Assembly: GCA_001600175.1 (NCBI GenBank)
Contig: BCJC01000003.1
Location: 992,001-1,056,000 of the forward strand
Reading direction: 5' to 3'
DNA from: Erythrobasidium yunnanense
Taxonomy: Eukaryota; Basidiomycota; Cystobasidiomycetes; Erythrobasidiales; Erythrobasidiaceae
Length of the DNA stretch: 64,000 bases
The notes under the pieces are model-generated. The model did no database searches. It was not told the DNA's origin and was given only the letters and a program-made list of their open reading frames with translations. The position numbers were made by a program, and so were the translations under genes. Below are positions 51,777 through 60,489 of this stretch, in pieces (the first letter of the stretch is position 1; every line of letters starts with the position of its first letter).

Positions 51777-53793
51777 TCACTCCTCCCATCCTGATATCTC
51801 CAACTCTAGCGGATGTCTATTATTCTCCTTCTCTAGCTTCGTCTGTTCCTCAATGACAAATCTACTGAGTTTCGCATACCCTTCCTCTCCACTGACTCCC
51901 TTGAGCAATTCCTTCGTTCTCCCTTCCTTCTCTAATCTATTCCAACCCCTCATGCATCTCCAGAACTGTACACGCACTTCCTCGCGCCATGGCTCGATAA
52001 TAAAGCCCGTTTTATCAATACTGGACCCCGCAGATATCCCGTGAGAAGCCAGGAAAGCTATGATACGACGCTGGTATACTTCACTTTCGCCAGCGTGAGG
52101 AGGACCCTGTCGATGTCCGACTTTCTCAACCACCCTGTTCAGAGCTAGAGTGCGAGCCTCGTCTTCTATTAACAATCGATACAGCTCATCTCGTGAGGGG
52201 AGAATGTCAGGCTTTGCGAGAAGCCAAGCTATGAGTGCGCTCTGAACGGCATTCGAGAAGCGGTAGCTTGTCGACATGATGTTCCCGCACCAGAACAGCG
52301 ATGCCGGACCATGATTGGATGCGAATGAAGCGGTATGCTCGAACAACGGACGGACTAGCACAGTAACAAACACTTAGATCCCTGCATTTGTTTTCTTGAT
52401 GCGATACATCGTGCTCACCATAGTAGTCTGTACTGACGAGACCTCCGAAATCTTCCTCTTCTATCTTCGGCAATGGCTTTCCAGGCCTTCTTTGCAGCAA
52501 ACCTCCTCGCTCAAGATACTCGTATCGAATGATGAAGCCTGTACCTAGATAGACAGTGTCGATGCTGTTCCAACTTTCATCAGCTATCGGGCATAGATGC
52601 ACCTAAGAACGGGTCGACTCACTCCGTGATCTCTGAACCATCGCTGAAGACAGCTGCATCGGCGGTGAAGTGCGAGAGACGCGCTCTTCGCTCGTACGGC
52701 CACTTCGGCGGCAGGATGACCGTAGGCGTCACCGCGTGGTATACCTGCAAAGCAGAGCTCTCAAAACTTTATAACAGTCATCACAAGACGAACTCTCACC
52801 TTCCTGGCCGTCTTGCCTATTTGCAACGATCCATCAAGACCCGAAGGCCCTGCTCCAACTACTAGCACAGTCTGGTCTTTGAACGCTTTCGGCCCCCTAT
52901 AGAAAGCAGAATGCATGATCTTCCTCCCAGGCCGGGCAGCTAGCCATTCTTCCTGCCCTTTAAAAGTCGGTATTGCAGGATGCACAAGATGGCCTGTCGC
53001 ATCAATGATGGCGTCGAATTCATCTTTAAACACTTCTTGCTGTCTGTCCGATGTGGATGAAGAGGAAGATGGAGGGAATGCTTTGCTGATGACTTTCCAA
53101 CGCCCGCCTTGGCCTGCTTCCGTCGATCCTTCCCATTTCGCTGAGTATAATTCCCGATTACACAGTATCCGCCTAGGTAGTTGGCGTCGAGCTTCGTCTG
53201 CGGGGGTGTTCGATGGCTGAAGGGGAATGTCTGCCTTGTAATTATGCCCATTTATTGAAGGTTCCGGCTGTCGATCCCAATCTTCTGGATCTGAGCTGTA
53301 TAACCCCCATTTCTGCGCGTAATCTTGTAAGTACTTGAGGATAACTTTCCAATGTGGAAATAGGTCGGTCTCGTCGGGAAAAGGGGTATGTGGATATGTC
53401 ACTGTGATTACCGAAAAGTCGAATCAGATTGGACTCGCACTCTTGCGCGACAAATCTGAGAGAAAGATGAGTGCTCACTCATATGTATCGGTGTATTGGT
53501 ACGTAAATCTGGGTACAAGCCAGTAAGCGCGACATGCGAAGCGGGGTCTTCGTCAGGAAGCCATTGTCCTCCTGGTATAGCAAGCGCCATGCATCAGTAT
53601 CATAGCTTCACTCAGATGCCCAGTTATAGCATGGGCTAAACCGAAAGAAACACTTTGTACCTAGAGCTTCTCTCCGCTCGAAGACAGTCACTCTCCAGCC
53701 TTCGCGGAGCTCTCTAGGAAGGTCTTGCAATGTCTTCAAGAGGCTTAATGTTGCGCTGCCATAGCCTACTATTGCTATATGCTTCGCCGGCAT
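51777..53793 (-). CDS. flavin-containing monooxygenase
   Basis: The start at 53793 gives MPAKHIAIVGYGSATLSLLK, the FAD-binding strand. The glycine motif is altered from G-x-G-x-x-G to G-Y-G-S-A-T. Splicing then yields VTVFERREALGGQWLPDEDP and GLYPDLRTNTPIHM, both typical of FMOs (GGxW and YxxLRTNxP). Next come TYPHTPFPDETDLFPHWKVI and KYLQDYAQKWGLYSS, then DAIIDATGHLVHPAIPTFKG. A second Rossmann motif, VLVVGAGPSGLDGSLQIGKT, should bind NADPH. The C-terminal half shows VYLGTGFIIRYEYLERGGLL and ASLFWCGNIMSTSYRF, ending HPLELEISGWEE. FMOs oxygenate soft nucleophiles such as N or S; the substrate here is unknown. Six or so short introns are needed to keep the frame. Confidence 0.85.
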
Positions 53794-54674: not shown

Positions 54675-55275
54675 ATGCCTAAGACCGCGACCACATATGC
54701 AAGCAGCAGCTCAGCCTCGAATAGCAGTCTCCCATTGCATCCCAGATCGCTAGAAGTCGAGTCTGACCAAGCGCTCGTGCCTATTTCCCGTCGAAGCAAG
54801 ACTCGCTCGACTCCGAGCAAACAGCTAGCTACTCGTCCAGCCATACGTCAACGCAGATCCACTGGCGAAGAAGTTGTTCTGGAACCCAATCCTAAAAGAC
54901 GCGCTAAGATGGAGGTGCTAGGTCGCACGAAGATGAATACCAACCTCCTAATGGGTGTTTACAAGCCCTACAAGCAAATCACCTATACTGTGCACCGTGA
55001 CGGTAGTAGAGAAGTGAACGAACGTAAGCCTGACTTAACGGCTGGTCTTCAGCCTAGCTTACGTATCGCCCCTCCTCGCAGGAGTCCCCATAAAACGCAT
55101 CTACCAGCTTTCAGACATCAAGGAAGGAGTGGAAATTCCTAAAGCTGTCAAGTATGGCCGTATGTTCAATATGCTTCTTGGCGGCGGGGACATCAACAAG
55201 CACATTATGGACGACTCGGCCAGCTCTTCTTCATCTGGTGACGATTACCGTCGACATAGAAAGGGAGGACGTTAG
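54675..55275 (+). CDS. orphan-module protein 1 (one module)
   Basis: Two exons (54675-55023, 55082-55275) total 543 nt, giving 180 residues. The N-terminal 70 residues are rich in Ser, Arg and Lys (MPKTATTYASSSSASNSS). One copy of the family module follows: GEEVVLEPNPKRRAKMEVLG, RTKMNTNLLMGVYKPYKQIT and YTVHRDGSREVNE. The phase-1 intron falls here, and RVPIKRIYQLSDIKEGVEIP with KAVKYGRMFNMLL complete it. The tail is Ser- and basic-rich (DDYRRHRKGGR). No signal peptide, membrane helix or metal-binding motif is visible. I do not recognise this family. The basic ends suggest a nuclear or nucleic-acid-linked place, but that is a guess. It is the most diverged and only one-module member of the three-gene cluster. 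Confidence 0.65.
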
Positions 55276-55686
55276 CTGCGATTGAATGTGCTTATGCGAG
55301 GCTTTTGTTTCGAGCGCGATTTAGTTCGTGCGCAAGACCAAGGAAGCATATGAACTGACTCACCTGCTCGTGGCTTGAGCAGCGGGACGGCGTTCGGCAT
55401 ATTTATCAAAGAGCATGGACTGTGTCCTGATACGGACGTCTCGCGGTCGCTCACCTGCCCAAACCTCCCTGCCGTTCGATGAGCTTGTCATAAAAATTCG
55501 GTATAATGAAAATGCTGGTTGAGCCGAAGGACATGCTAGACTTCCGTGACTCGACGTGCACGACGGTAGGCACCGCCGCCTTATTTAACTCCCTCGAAAA
55601 ACCCTGCCGGGAGGAAGAGGCTTTCCATTTTCACTGCGACCACCAAGACAGCCTCACACTTCATCGACAACCTGAACAGTCCTAGT
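55276..55686. other. intergenic between orphan-module genes 1 and 2
   Basis: No gene is seen here. The right half (from about 55534) is closely matched upstream of gene 3. Confidence 0.55.
55534..55560. promoter_or_regulatory. 27-nt block upstream of orphan-module gene 2
   Basis: This 27-nt stretch is identical to 57088-57114, while flanking sequence has diverged. It lies about 127 nt before the ATG of gene 2, against about 139 nt for gene 3. It contains TGACTC, the core recognised by Gcn4/AP-1-type bZIP factors. Regulation through it is an inference. Confidence 0.5.
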
Positions 55687-56831
55687 ATGCCTAGAATCAC
55701 AGCTCAAGCCTCGGTTAGTGCCTCAAGCTCTCATCACAGTCTGTCACGGTCATCAGTAGCGCAAAAGCAGGAGCGGAATACAGAAACATCATCTTGTGGT
55801 CGTCGACAACAGAGCCACACACCTCAAAAACTCCCTCATATACCTCAGCGCACATACACAGGGGAGGAATATGTGCACACAGAATGTCCGATTCCACCCG
55901 AAGCCGACTTGCATGAAGTCATCGGCCGTTCAATCGATAATACACACTACCTCGTGGGAGTTCGCAAGGCCTTGTTTAGGAATAGGGTCATTGTGCACAG
56001 AAATGGCAAACGAGACGGCAGTGGCGGTATGTCTACTGGCTTGATTGTACGTTGTGCAGAGACTGACTCATGCGGGCTTCTCGTGGCAGGCTTCACTCCC
56101 TTCATGATCTCGCATGTTGAGCTGGGTGAGGTTCTTCCTCGTTCCGTAAAATACGGCCGAGTTCTCAATCTGGGTCGACGCGACAGCGATGGCACCGACG
56201 AATTGAGCGAATCCAAGATGAACGGTATAGGTCTCAAGTTGGAGTATCACTACGGAGCATCAGTCGATGGCAGTTACCCTTCGAAAGGCCCAGTCGACAG
56301 CAAATCTGGCTCAAGCCCCAAGCCCCGCCCTATGGTACACCCATCCATAATCATACGCAGCGCTGCCGACAAGGAAGTAGTGTTGATACCAGACTTGAGT
56401 GAGCCTGTCAAGACCAAAATCGTTGGCCGTTCAATCAGGAACACACATTACCTGCTGGGCGTTTCTTGACCCTACAACGAGGTGACATACAAGATACATA
56501 GCGACGGCAGTAGAGATCTCGACACAGGTGCGTCCAATTCGCCAGCAAGCTGTGCAACAAACGAAGCTAGCTTACTTCATCTGCGTCTGCAGGAGTGCCT
56601 ATTGTGCGAGTCTATAGACTTACGCACATCGAGGAAGGTGATATCATCCCGAACGCCGTCAAATACAAAAGAGTCATCCCGAAGCTTGATGTCCTGACTG
56701 CCCTCAATCCGAACAAAATGATAGAATCGCAACTTGGCAAAGTGATGGGAGGCGGAAATATTCGGAATAAACGACTGACAGGCTCCGAGTCTGCTGAGAA
56801 GAAGCATAAGCGAAATATTTTGGAAAAGTAG
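55687..56831 (+). CDS. orphan-module protein 2, in-frame TGA
   Basis: Three exons (55687-56026, 56090-56527, 56593-56831) total 1017 nt. Module A reads GEEYVHTECPIPPEADLHEV, IGRSIDNTHYLVGVRKALFR and VIVHRNGKRDGSGG, and after the intron GFTPFMISHVELGEVLPRSV with KYGRVLN. Module B begins KEVVLIPDLSEPVKTKIVGR SIRNTHYLLGVS. A TGA at 56467-56469 follows where gene 3 has a CGG Arg codon. The frame then stays open: PYNEVTYKIHSDGSRDLDTG, VPIVRVYRLTHIEEGDIIPN and AVKYKRVIPKL, ending KHKRNILEK. Stopping at TGA gives 239 residues with module B cut. Because the rest is preserved, the stop is recent, or is read through. Function is unknown. Confidence 0.6.
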
Positions 56832-57252
56832 TCAGGTTGACCGATATTTACTTCTACTTCCTGGTCTGACGCAACGCCTCTGTACCCGATGCGCTCGATA
56901 ATCACAACAACAACCCCTCGTATTCTACATCCTGATTTGAAAGTCGAAGTACTGCCTCTACTCAGCGCCCTCTAGTATACGACCTGTCCCTGTAACCAAA
57001 TTCAACAGTAATGCCCCGGCAACTTTCTTCACGGCCCATTCTACGAAAAATACGTCTATAATGAAGATCTGAGTGAACAGGAAGACGTGCTAGACTTCCG
57101 TGACTCGACGTGCAAGACTGCCAGCACCGCCGCCTTTTTCACCTGCCTCGAAAATCCTGAATGGATGGAACGATCCGCTCTCCGCTTCACTCGAAAGACT
57201 GCGACTATCACGCACAGACTCCCTTTCTCTGGTGTTTCAAGACACTGCTATT
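56832..57252. other. intergenic between orphan-module genes 2 and 3
   Basis: No gene is seen. The stretch 56935-57045 is repeated at 58460-58585 and the part from 57088 matches the upstream region of gene 2. Confidence 0.55.
57088..57114. promoter_or_regulatory. 27-nt block upstream of orphan-module gene 3
   Basis: Identical to 55534-55560, including the TGACTC core. The surrounding sequence shows substitutions and small gaps, so this block is more conserved than its neighbours. Confidence 0.5.
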
Positions 57253-58372
57253 ATGCCTGGAAGCGCAAATGAAACTTCAGATGGTAGCCGCATCCCTCAG
57301 CATGGTCTGCTACAACAAACCGTATTGACAAAGGACCAGGAAGTTCAGCATGGTGTCCATCACGGGCAAGGGCGTGCGAGCAAAAATTGCCTTATGTACC
57401 TCAGCGTAAGCATACTGGTCAAGAATTGGTCCATCGGTTTCGGATTGAGCCCGAATACAAACGCGAACTTCGTGAGAACATTGGTCGATCGCTCGACAAT
57501 ACGCACTACCTCGTAGGTGTTCGGTCAGCTGTTTCCAGCCAACAATATGTCGTGCATAGGAATGGCAAGAAAGATGTCGCGTGCGGTACGTAGATTGGAT
57601 TGCATCAAGGAACTCGCTTATGCAGATTTATTTCTGCAGGCGGCTCCTTCGCAGGCGGCGCCTCCTACTACTTCTCGCGTGTCGAAGTAGGAGAGATCCT
57701 GCCGAGATCCATCGAGTATCAGCGGATTCTCAACCCAGCTCTGAATCTAAATGATGATACTAGCGAGCTCATCAAGCGAGAGAGTGCAGATCCCCTGGCA
57801 GAAGGGGCTTATGGACGCCTGGCGGAAGCAAGCGTCACTCTGGCAGGCTCAATCTTCGGGGCGGATTCTGAGAGCTGGAAGTGCAGCCCTACTATACCTC
57901 CCTCCCTGGCCATATACAGTCGTGGTGCAACAGAAATCGTCTTGGTTCCCGATATGGCCGCGACCGTCAAGAAGGACATCATCGGCCGCTCACTCCAGAA
58001 TACACATTTTCTGCTAGGCTTTTCTCGGCTTTACAACAAGATCGCTTATACCGTCCATAAAGATGGCAGTAGAGATATCGATCGAAGTATGTACAAAGTC
58101 GTACGCACTTGGAGACCTTGCCTTACGCATCTATCGTTCCAGGCGTGCCCATTGAGCAGGAATACAGGCTGTCTCGCATTACGAGAGGCGAAGCTATACC
58201 GCGACCCGTGAAATATAAGCGGGTCCTGCCGAACCTGAATGCCTTCAATCCCAAGAAAATGATAGACTCGCAACTTGGCAAGGTTATACTGGCTGAAGAC
58301 ATACAAACTAAGCGATTGACAGGCTCTGGCTCTCGTCACAAAACACACCGACGAAACAGGTTAGAAGAGTAG
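57253..58372 (+). CDS. orphan-module protein 3 (two modules)
   Basis: The ATG at 57253 opens MPGSANETSDGSRIPQHGLL. At an A5 run near 57380 the frame must shift to reach QKLPYVPQRKHTGQELVHRF; either this is a one-base frameshift, or a 58-nt intron ending GAG is used. Module A: ENIGRSLDNTHYLVGVRSAV and YVVHRNGKKDVACG, then after the intron FSRVEVGEILPRSIEYQRIL. Module B: TEIVLVPDMAATVKKDIIGR, SLQNTHFLLGFSRLYNKIAY and TVHKDGSRDIDR, then after the phase-1 intron VPIEQEYRLSRITRGEAIPR with PVKYKRVLPNL. It ends HKTHRRNRLEE. Module B is intact, with CGG Arg where gene 2 has TGA. The last 40 residues are basic. The function is unknown. Confidence 0.6.
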
Positions 58373-58494
58373 CAAAGTTGTCTCTTCGTCCCTTAGATTT
58401 TCAGTCTGATGATACGCGTTTGCGCCCGAATGGAGTGACTAGCACAAGAGTTTCCAGTAATCTACATCCTTATCTGAAATTCGAAGTTCTATCA

Positions 58495-60489
58495 CTACTC
58501 AGCGCCCTCTAATATACGACCTGTCCGCGTGACCAAATTTAACGGTAAAGCTCTGGCAACTTTCTTGACAGCCCATTCCACGCCCGTCTTTTGTGAAGGA
58601 CAGTACACATTGCTATCCACTCGACTGTGCCATAAGAAAGTCCGTCTGAAGACTTTGTCTACGTATTCTTCTGTCTGGTTTTTGATGCAGGGCTTCAGGA
58701 GAGGCGGTGGAGTCCATGTTTCCTGAATCACAAGATCTTAGCTTTCGCATCTGATAAAATGATTGCGAGCTCACACTCTCCACGAAAGCTAGAGGGAAGA
58801 CAGCCAAGCCGCAATGCGTTTTGTGCTCGCATACGTTGAGGAGACCTGGATGAGGTATATTCAGCCTCACCAAATGCATGATTGAGACAGGAATACTCAC
58901 CATCGTTGGTTGTGCGTCCCGAGAAGGGCACAAAGCCATACTTAGTTGAGCTGAAAATGGCCTTAGAAAGCATATCGCCATTTACCAGTTAGTTTACTCA
59001 CTTCCACGCGTTCCGGTCGAAAGGTATTGTGCATAACGTATCAAGCATCTTGGAGGCTTGCGGGCTAGGGTGTTTGCCAACTGAAATTATGTGATTGTTG
59101 TAGTAGTGATTGCGATCGAAAGGCTTATCAAGGTGATTGTGATAAGCCGGTGCGAAAGGGCCGACACGAAGTAGCCTGCAGGAAGCTGCGTCAGCATATT
59201 CAGACAGTACATCATTTGACTGTGCTTACGAGGTCATATCGCGAATGAAGACGACATCGCTGTCCAGCCAGACACCTCCGTACTATTTCGAAACAATATC
59301 AGCCTTCGGAAGTAAATTAAAGTGGCTACAGCAGGACCCACCTTCGCTAGCAGCATCGTTCGTAACAGATTCGACACAGCTGCATTTCCCATATTTGCTC
59401 TTTGACGGTATTTCGAGCTTGTCCACTCTAGATTCCTCTCATAGCATGTTCCTTTCGCTATGGCTGCATGGTTGAGAGCTCTAAAGATGACTATCTTCGG
59501 CGCCAGCTCGGCATAGCGGTCTAAGACTTTCTTAGGCGGAGGTGTCGTTTTGCCATGCCAGAAGATCAGCCTATCGAACGACGCATATCAGCCACGGGCT
59601 CCTGATTACACTGTATCGAGCTGCAATGCTTCACCTGTGCCCGGCTGCCAAATTTTGAGTCGCTAGGAAAGAATCGATAGCGAGCTCGAAGGCATCTCCC
59701 CATCCGCCTGTGGACGTATTACGTCAGCTTCGTTGCACGATACCATCGCCCAGAAAGAGTCTGCTCACCTTCCCAATGCATATGGAAGAGGAAGCCGCCT
59801 TCGGGTATAGGGAATACCGGACAGCTAGAGTTCTTCGCATAGTTTGCATCCCAGTCTCTCAGCGGAGCTTCAGCATCCAGCAGCCCGGTTCGTTTCGCAT
59901 AGTCTACGATGCACTGTTGAGCATTCGAGCATAAGCAGATGTAGGAGAGGTTTATATAGGCAGAGCGGCGTACTGAAGGAGAGTTGAAAGTATCTCTCCA
60001 TGATGCCGGATACTGGAGAACGCCGCTGATCAGACATGATGCCGGGGTCAAGCAAGAGAGACCGCGCCGACTCACCACATTGTGCTTGAGGAAGAATTTA
60101 GAGTCATGTCGAGCTTCTTCAGGAAGAGATATTTGCAGAGTCGAGCTTGCGGCTGCAGCGGTCTCTACGGGTGCTGATGTGATCGTCTCGGTGACTGTCT
60201 GCACCGATAGAGCTTGTGTGATAGCATCTGTCTGTGGCAGAGCTACTGATGACGACGAATCGGATGTTGCTGTCCCTTTGCTGTGCTCCCGCGTATCAAG
60301 TTCGATAGCAGGCGGAGAGGGCTTGATCCTTCTTCCATGAAACAGGACCGGATACTCGGTTACGAGCGTTGGAGTGGATGATATACTGATGTATGGGTGG
60401 AAGAGATAAGCTGTGAAGAGTGCGCCCGTTGTCGTAGCCACGAGCAGTCGAAGGAGGGTCGACGGAGATGGTAGGCAATCGCCTGTCAT
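58495..60489 (-). CDS. type II membrane DXD glycosyltransferase
   Basis: The start MTGDCLPSPSTLLRLLVATT is followed by TGALFTAYLFHPYISI, a single signal-anchor helix, and a Ser/Thr-rich stem. The catalytic part is spread over several exons: APLRDWDANYAKNSSCPVFP, GGFLFHMHWEG, LIFWHGKTTPPPKKVLDRYA, then LLRTMLLAK spliced to YGGVWLDSDVVFIRDM. YGGVWLDSD is the DXD motif of the Gly_transf_sug/GT32-like group, which binds nucleotide-sugar through a metal ion. Later segments are VGPFAPAYHNHLDKPFDRNH and GDMLSKAIFSSTKYGFVPFS. The last exon reads VIQETWTPPPLLKPCIKNQT and ends RTGRILEGAE. It probably works in the Golgi on glycans; donor and acceptor are unknown. The upstream in-frame GTG at 60531 is not used as start. 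Confidence 0.78.

What the first reader, a model, noticed from the sequence alone, without database searches (positions are those of the whole stretch)
54675..58372. Tandem family built from an unrecognised module of about 90 residues
Three adjacent genes carry five copies of one module: one in gene 1, two each in genes 2 and 3. The shared pattern is G-R-(ST)-x3-N-T-(HN)-x-L-(LV)-G-(VF), then a Y/V-x-(IV)-H-(RSK)-(DN)-G-(SK)-(RK)-(DE) strand, then Y-x-(LIV)-x3-(IV)-x3-E-x-(IL)-P-x-x-V-K-Y-x-R. I cannot match it to a known domain. In all five copies a phase-1 intron lies right after the H-x-(DN)-G-x-x-(DE) strand. So the module was doubled inside a gene with its intron before the gene itself was duplicated.
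Basis: partly seen in the sequence, partly recalled or inferred. Interest (0 to 1): 0.75.

Follow-up and report, generated by a model that had tools for sequence, protein, structure and literature searches.

The report
Small orphan-like fungal gene family
A fungus-type genome carries a small family of basic proteins of unknown function, built from a roughly 100-residue module with no clear relative in the databases searched; it grew by ordinary duplication, one copy looks broken, and a sixth copy lies on another contig.

Summary
Five copies of one module, each split by a 54-65 nt phase-1 GT-AG intron at the same point, lie in three adjacent genes at 54675-58372. A sixth, single-module copy on another contig, with the same predicted intron, was found here. 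No significant match was found in Pfam, NCBIfam, PHROGs, PDB sequences, phages, plasmids, or pattern-based scans of viral and bacterial/archaeal contigs; fungal proteomes could not be searched. In 15 of 15 copy pairs synonymous differences exceed replacement ones, so this is constrained coding sequence. Corrections: gene 2 has an in-frame TGA inside its second module; gene 3's ATG and modules lie in different frames unless an extra 56-nt intron is spliced. The duplicated unit carried an upstream non-coding block and the presumed 3' end of a neighbouring glycosyltransferase-type gene. Two AlphaFold2 runs were too poor to name a fold. Best reading: a probably lineage-restricted family of small, basic, intracellular proteins, perhaps nuclear and nucleic-acid-binding (weak). 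Interest is modest.

The parts
54675..55276 (+). Gene 1: 180-aa basic protein with one module; intron 55024-55081
   Evidence: Spliced frame open from ATG to stop; pI 10.4, no hydrophobic stretch
55687..56831 (+). Gene 2: modules 2a and 2b; introns 56027-56089 and 56528-56592; in-frame TGA at 56467-56469 inside 2b
   Evidence: codons after the TGA still show pN 0.22-0.27 against pS 0.61-0.71
57253..58372 (+). Gene 3: modules 3a and 3b; introns 57586-57639 and 58087-58142; a further 56-nt candidate intron 57284-57339 would bring ATG and modules into one frame
   Evidence: the candidate intron has GT..AG but lacks the branch motif seen in the other five
54819..55170 (+). Module of gene 1, intron included
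   Evidence: alignment A2; tree (placed with the b modules, weakly)
55828..56211 (+). Module 2a, intron included (63-nt intron with no in-frame stop, so its retention would stay open)
56332..56684 (+). Module 2b, intron and TGA included
57384..57779 (+). Module 3a, intron included
57891..58240 (+). Module 3b, intron included
55515..55603 (.). Conserved non-coding block upstream of gene 2 (copy 1)
   Evidence: 72 of 89 identical to copy 2; pS 0.18-0.27 and pN 0.17-0.20 in the six frames, so no coding pattern; DNA search finds only these two places in the genome
57069..57157 (.). Conserved non-coding block upstream of gene 3 (copy 2)
58495..58737 (-). Presumed last-exon reading frame of the convergent neighbour, a glycosyltransferase-type gene
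   Evidence: open frame; no family match of its own; roughly joined upstream pieces of the gene match Caps_synth 3e-8 and Gly_transf_sug 1.3e-7
56920..57045 (-). Remnant of a second copy of that 3' end, between genes 2 and 3
   Evidence: 84% identical to 58457-58582; in that reading frame pS 0.40-0.43, pN 0.08-0.09

Best explanation
This is a real, protein-coding, probably lineage-restricted family of small basic proteins, with at least six module copies in this genome. Each module is about 100 residues and carries a phase-1 intron that predates the duplications. From sequence and tree: a one-module form was doubled inside a gene, intron included, and the two-module gene was then duplicated together with an upstream block and at least the 3' end of the convergent glycosyltransferase-type gene. 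Inferred: the middle copy of that neighbour was once longer and was lost except for its end; gene 2 as assembled is a recent truncation; gene 3 is intact only if an extra 5' intron is spliced. Inferred and weaker (about 0.3): the proteins stay in the cell, probably the nucleus, and the strand-rich module, with basic tails, binds nucleic acid or chromatin, the two-module forms giving two contact sites.
For: E of 1.8e-4 or better from gene 1 to each of the five other copies, genome-wide. The same phase-1 intron is predicted in 6 of 6 copies, and in the contig-C6 copy splicing it uncovers the matching second half, which had not been used to find it. pS exceeds pN in 15 of 15 module pairs. Tree supports and rejected alternatives. 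The 3' remnant of the neighbour is conserved most strongly in that gene's reading frame. pI is 9.5-10.4 for four predicted products (gene 2 up to its stop, gene 3 with the candidate intron), with no 19-residue hydropathy window above 0.95. Both weak structure models are nearly all strand in the first half.
Against: No RNA, protein or second-strain data. The nucleic-acid-binding step rests on charge and weak strand predictions; no fold was established. Lineage restriction is untested among fungi. Gene 1's grouping with the b modules is weak (69/67). The C6 copy is significant from gene 1 and back (4.8e-5, 1.0e-5) and to 2b (3.2e-4), but weaker from gene 3 (0.22) and 3b (0.038), and it is not listed from 2a/2b. 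Gene 3's extra intron lacks the branch motif of the others.
Confidence: 0.7

Rival explanations
1. The module is a very diverged member of a known domain family that sequence profiles miss.
For: Fast-evolving copies (a against b modules 21-27% identical) can outrun profiles; both structure models were too poor to compare.
Against: No match over cut-off in Pfam, none in NCBIfam up to E 10, none in PDB sequences with the six-copy profile up to E 10. The rows seen were DUF1236 at E 0.064, 13.5 bits against a cut-off of 32.4, two PHROGs at 0.029 and 0.063 in one member each, and two PDB sequences at 0.48 and 1.3.
Confidence: 0.45
2. The tandem genes are decaying relics and none of the three makes a working product.
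For: In-frame TGA in gene 2 and a frame change in gene 3.
Against: Gene 1 and the contig-C6 gene are open from ATG to stop when spliced; codons after gene 2's TGA are as constrained as those before it, so any loss is recent.
Confidence: 0.15
3. Genes 2 and 3 are two ancient alleles of one locus under balancing selection, joined in tandem by unequal crossing-over, rather than ordinary duplicates.
For: Introns (61 of 109 identical) and linker (116 of 236) are far more diverged than the outer flanks (164 of 199; Fisher p 1.0e-6 and 2.5e-13).
Against: The downstream flank is largely explained by coding constraint on the neighbour's 3' end, whose synonymous sites are also well diverged (pS 0.40, 9.0 of 22.5 sites); the upstream block can be a constrained promoter.
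Confidence: 0.07

Closest known systems
Lineage-specific (orphan) tandem gene families of filamentous fungi (the kind is recalled, not compared by any search)
   Same: Small proteins without a known domain, tandem copies, divergence under purifying selection, a shared intron as mark of common descent
   Different: Two-module genes from internal doubling; a dispersed sixth copy; restriction to a lineage not tested here
Candidate effector families of barley powdery mildew (PMC3582587; seen only as a search listing and the start of the abstract; that members share an intron position is recalled)
   Same: A family recognised partly by a conserved intron position
   Different: Those are secreted (recalled); here hydropathy shows no secretion signal or membrane span; no sequence comparison with them was made

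Membership tests
Any Pfam-A domain family | Score over the curated cut-off | tested here: not met
   none over cut-off; one row, DUF1236, E 0.064, 13.5 bits against 32.4
Protein with a relative of solved structure | Significant sequence or profile match to a PDB chain | tested here: not met
   two rows, best E 0.48; 0 sequences up to E 10
Secreted effector-like proteins | Signal peptide or hydrophobic N-terminus | tested here: not met
   hydropathy windows only, no signal-peptide predictor: N-terminal 10-residue maxima from -0.19 to 0.98 in four products
Lineage-restricted (orphan) family | No relatives outside the lineage | tested here: inconclusive
   Pattern-based scans confirmed none in viral contigs or bacterial/archaeal genomes; tblastn with gene 1: phages none, plasmids one row at E 0.8; fungal proteomes not available
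Paralogous gene family with one ancestral intron | Same intron position and phase in all members | tested here: met
   6 of 6 copies, by sequence only

The most novel reading that the evidence does not exclude
A previously undescribed strand-rich protein module, with its own fold, acting as a small basic nuclear binding unit in one fungal lineage and growing by module doubling.
Probability: 0.2. Interest if true: 0.5.

Novelty: new member of a known kind. Interest (0 to 1): 0.3.

Why it matters
Short, fast-evolving, intron-split families like this are easily missed by gene prediction. This one is a clear case in which an intron inside a module dates the order of an internal doubling and a gene duplication, and it gives six seed sequences for a domain search in fungal proteomes. 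By itself it does not overturn anything.

Tried and rejected
That is too poor for a fold search, so none was run.

Balanced-allele idea: the better conserved flanks first suggested that the tandem arrangement is younger than the split of the genes. Codon analysis showed the downstream flank to behave as the coding 3' end of the neighbour, so the idea dropped to a minor rival.

RIP (repeat-induced point mutation) as the source of the TGA in gene 2: TpA/ApT and (CpA+TpG)/(ApC+GpT) are 0.66 and 1.24 in gene 2, 0.75 and 1.28 in gene 3, 0.73 and 1.30 in the window, which gives no sign of RIP in genes 2 and 3. They are 1.06 and 1.06 in gene 1, and 0.95 and 0.93 in the 421 bases between genes 2 and 3; the latter would pass commonly used RIP cut-offs (recalled). 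Over the 11 segments, transitions and transversions sum to 299 and 268, so transitions hardly dominate. Not settled, not pursued.

Upstream-block core: the exact 20-base core occurs at two places, both with no mismatch, but the backward control pattern also gave two matches at up to 3 mismatches, so that search alone shows little; the 89-base DNA search is the better evidence.

The contig-C8 hit (E 0.50) was set aside after reading its DNA by eye; not tested further.

Three literature searches listed nothing recognisable as this family; only listings and the starts of abstracts were seen, and no paper was opened.

Full report
The window is bases 992001-1056000 of contig C3 of an unnamed 20.9 Mb, 10-contig genome. 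Short GT-AG introns and the size suggest a filamentous fungus; that is inference, and the species was not determined.

Observation. Spliced at five GT-AG introns of 58, 63, 65, 54 and 56 nt, the modules align over 72 columns with 12 invariant positions. Extended upstream and with a sixth copy added, 11 columns are invariant across the six rows. Five of five introns are phase 1 and hold a CTNAY motif 21-27 nt from the acceptor. One of them (2a) is a multiple of three with no in-frame stop, so its retention would stay open; another (3a) is a multiple of three but holds a TAG.

New copy. Gene 1 as query finds contig C6:1502156-1502338 at E 4.8e-5. That gene, C6:1501940-1502558, is open from ATG to stop when one 55-nt phase-1 intron at the same point is removed, giving 187 residues. 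The part after the intron carries the matching VP...P-x-x-V-K pattern, which had not been used to find it. The reverse search returns gene 1 at E 1.0e-5, 2b at 3.2e-4, 3b at 0.028 and 2a at 0.91, and does not list 3a. From gene 3 the C6 copy is found only at 0.22 and from 3b at 0.038; from 2a/2b it is not listed. No seventh copy appeared in the five own-genome protein searches; these score only the best candidates, so six is a lower bound.

Selection and order of events. In 15 of 15 module pairs the proportion of synonymous differences exceeds that of replacement differences. Synonymous sites are saturated or nearly so in most pairs, so dN/dS values are rough; the pair with the lowest dS, 2b/3b, has dN 0.33 and dS 1.41. 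The tree joins 2a with 3a and 2b with 3b and rejects the within-gene pairings. Gene 1 falls with the b modules, but weakly (69/67), and pairing gene 1 with C6 is not rejected (p-AU 0.29). The C6 branch is long.

Damage. Gene 2 has a TGA at 56467-56469. pN and pS between 2b and 3b are 0.30 and 0.57 before it, 0.27 and 0.71 after it within the module, and 0.22 and 0.61 in the tail, so constraint continued past the stop until recently; an assembly error cannot be excluded. Gene 3's ATG (aligned with gene 2's) is in another frame than its modules. A 56-nt GT..AG stretch at 57284-57339 would solve this as an intron, but it has no branch motif of the kind seen in the others, so a real frame break remains possible.

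The duplicated unit. Between the units of genes 2 and 3, an 89-base block upstream (72 of 89 identical) and a 126-base block downstream (84%) stand out from introns (61 of 109 identical) and linker (116 of 236). The downstream block covers 28 codons and the 3' flank of an open frame that I take as the last exon of the convergent neighbour. That exon has no family match of its own, but roughly joined upstream pieces of the gene match Caps_synth and Gly_transf_sug. Synonymous changes exceed replacement ones most strongly in that gene's frame (pS 0.43, pN 0.09); two plus-strand frames show a milder excess (0.29 and 0.12; 0.24 and 0.14). I infer that both copies diverged as coding sequence and that the middle one was later lost except for its end. 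The upstream block shows no coding pattern in any of six frames and is found only at these two places in the genome; a shared promoter element is the simplest reading. The exact-core search found the same two places, with as many matches for its backward control.

Relatives elsewhere. No Pfam row over cut-off (DUF1236 at E 0.064; none), none in NCBIfam, two PDB sequences at E 0.48 and 1.3 with gene 3's modules and none with the profile. Two PHROGs rows each matched one of six members at E 0.029 and 0.063, taken as chance. Pattern-based scans gave 6 and 2 candidate stretches in viral contigs and 32 and 52 in bacterial and archaeal genomes, of which none was confirmed; such scans with single proteins reach close relatives only. 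Phages gave none, plasmids one row at E 0.8. No fungal collection was available, so 'orphan' means only this.

Mechanism. Four predicted products have pI 9.5-10.4 and no hydrophobic stretch (gene 2 up to its stop, gene 3 with the candidate intron). The reading frames of gene 1, gene 2 (past the stop), gene 3 and the C6 gene end in or near a basic cluster, by eye. Two low-confidence models predict mainly strands in the first half of the module. An intracellular, possibly nuclear, nucleic-acid-binding role is my most likely reading at about 0.3, and it is inference throughout.

Noticed in passing
L021:1285-1903 (contig C6:1501940-1502558): Sixth, single-module member of the family on another contig, with the same predicted phase-1 intron.
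   Followed up: yes
54819-54833: Gene 1's N-terminal region reads KQLAT, the same five letters as in the histone H3 tail (H3 recalled, not searched); genes 2 and 3 lack it at the aligned place, so it may be chance.
   Followed up: no
55515-55603 and 57069-57157: Upstream block with a 27-base identical run shared by genes 2 and 3 only; possible promoter element.
   Followed up: partly
56920-57045: Remnant of the 3' end of a glycosyltransferase-type gene left between genes 2 and 3.
   Followed up: yes
56832-57252: The stretch between genes 2 and 3 has dinucleotide ratios (0.95 and 0.93) that differ from the window's (0.73 and 1.30) in the direction of RIP.
   Followed up: no
52764-53423 (minus strand): Upstream neighbour matches flavin-binding monooxygenase (FMO-like, E 1.6e-11).
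   Followed up: no
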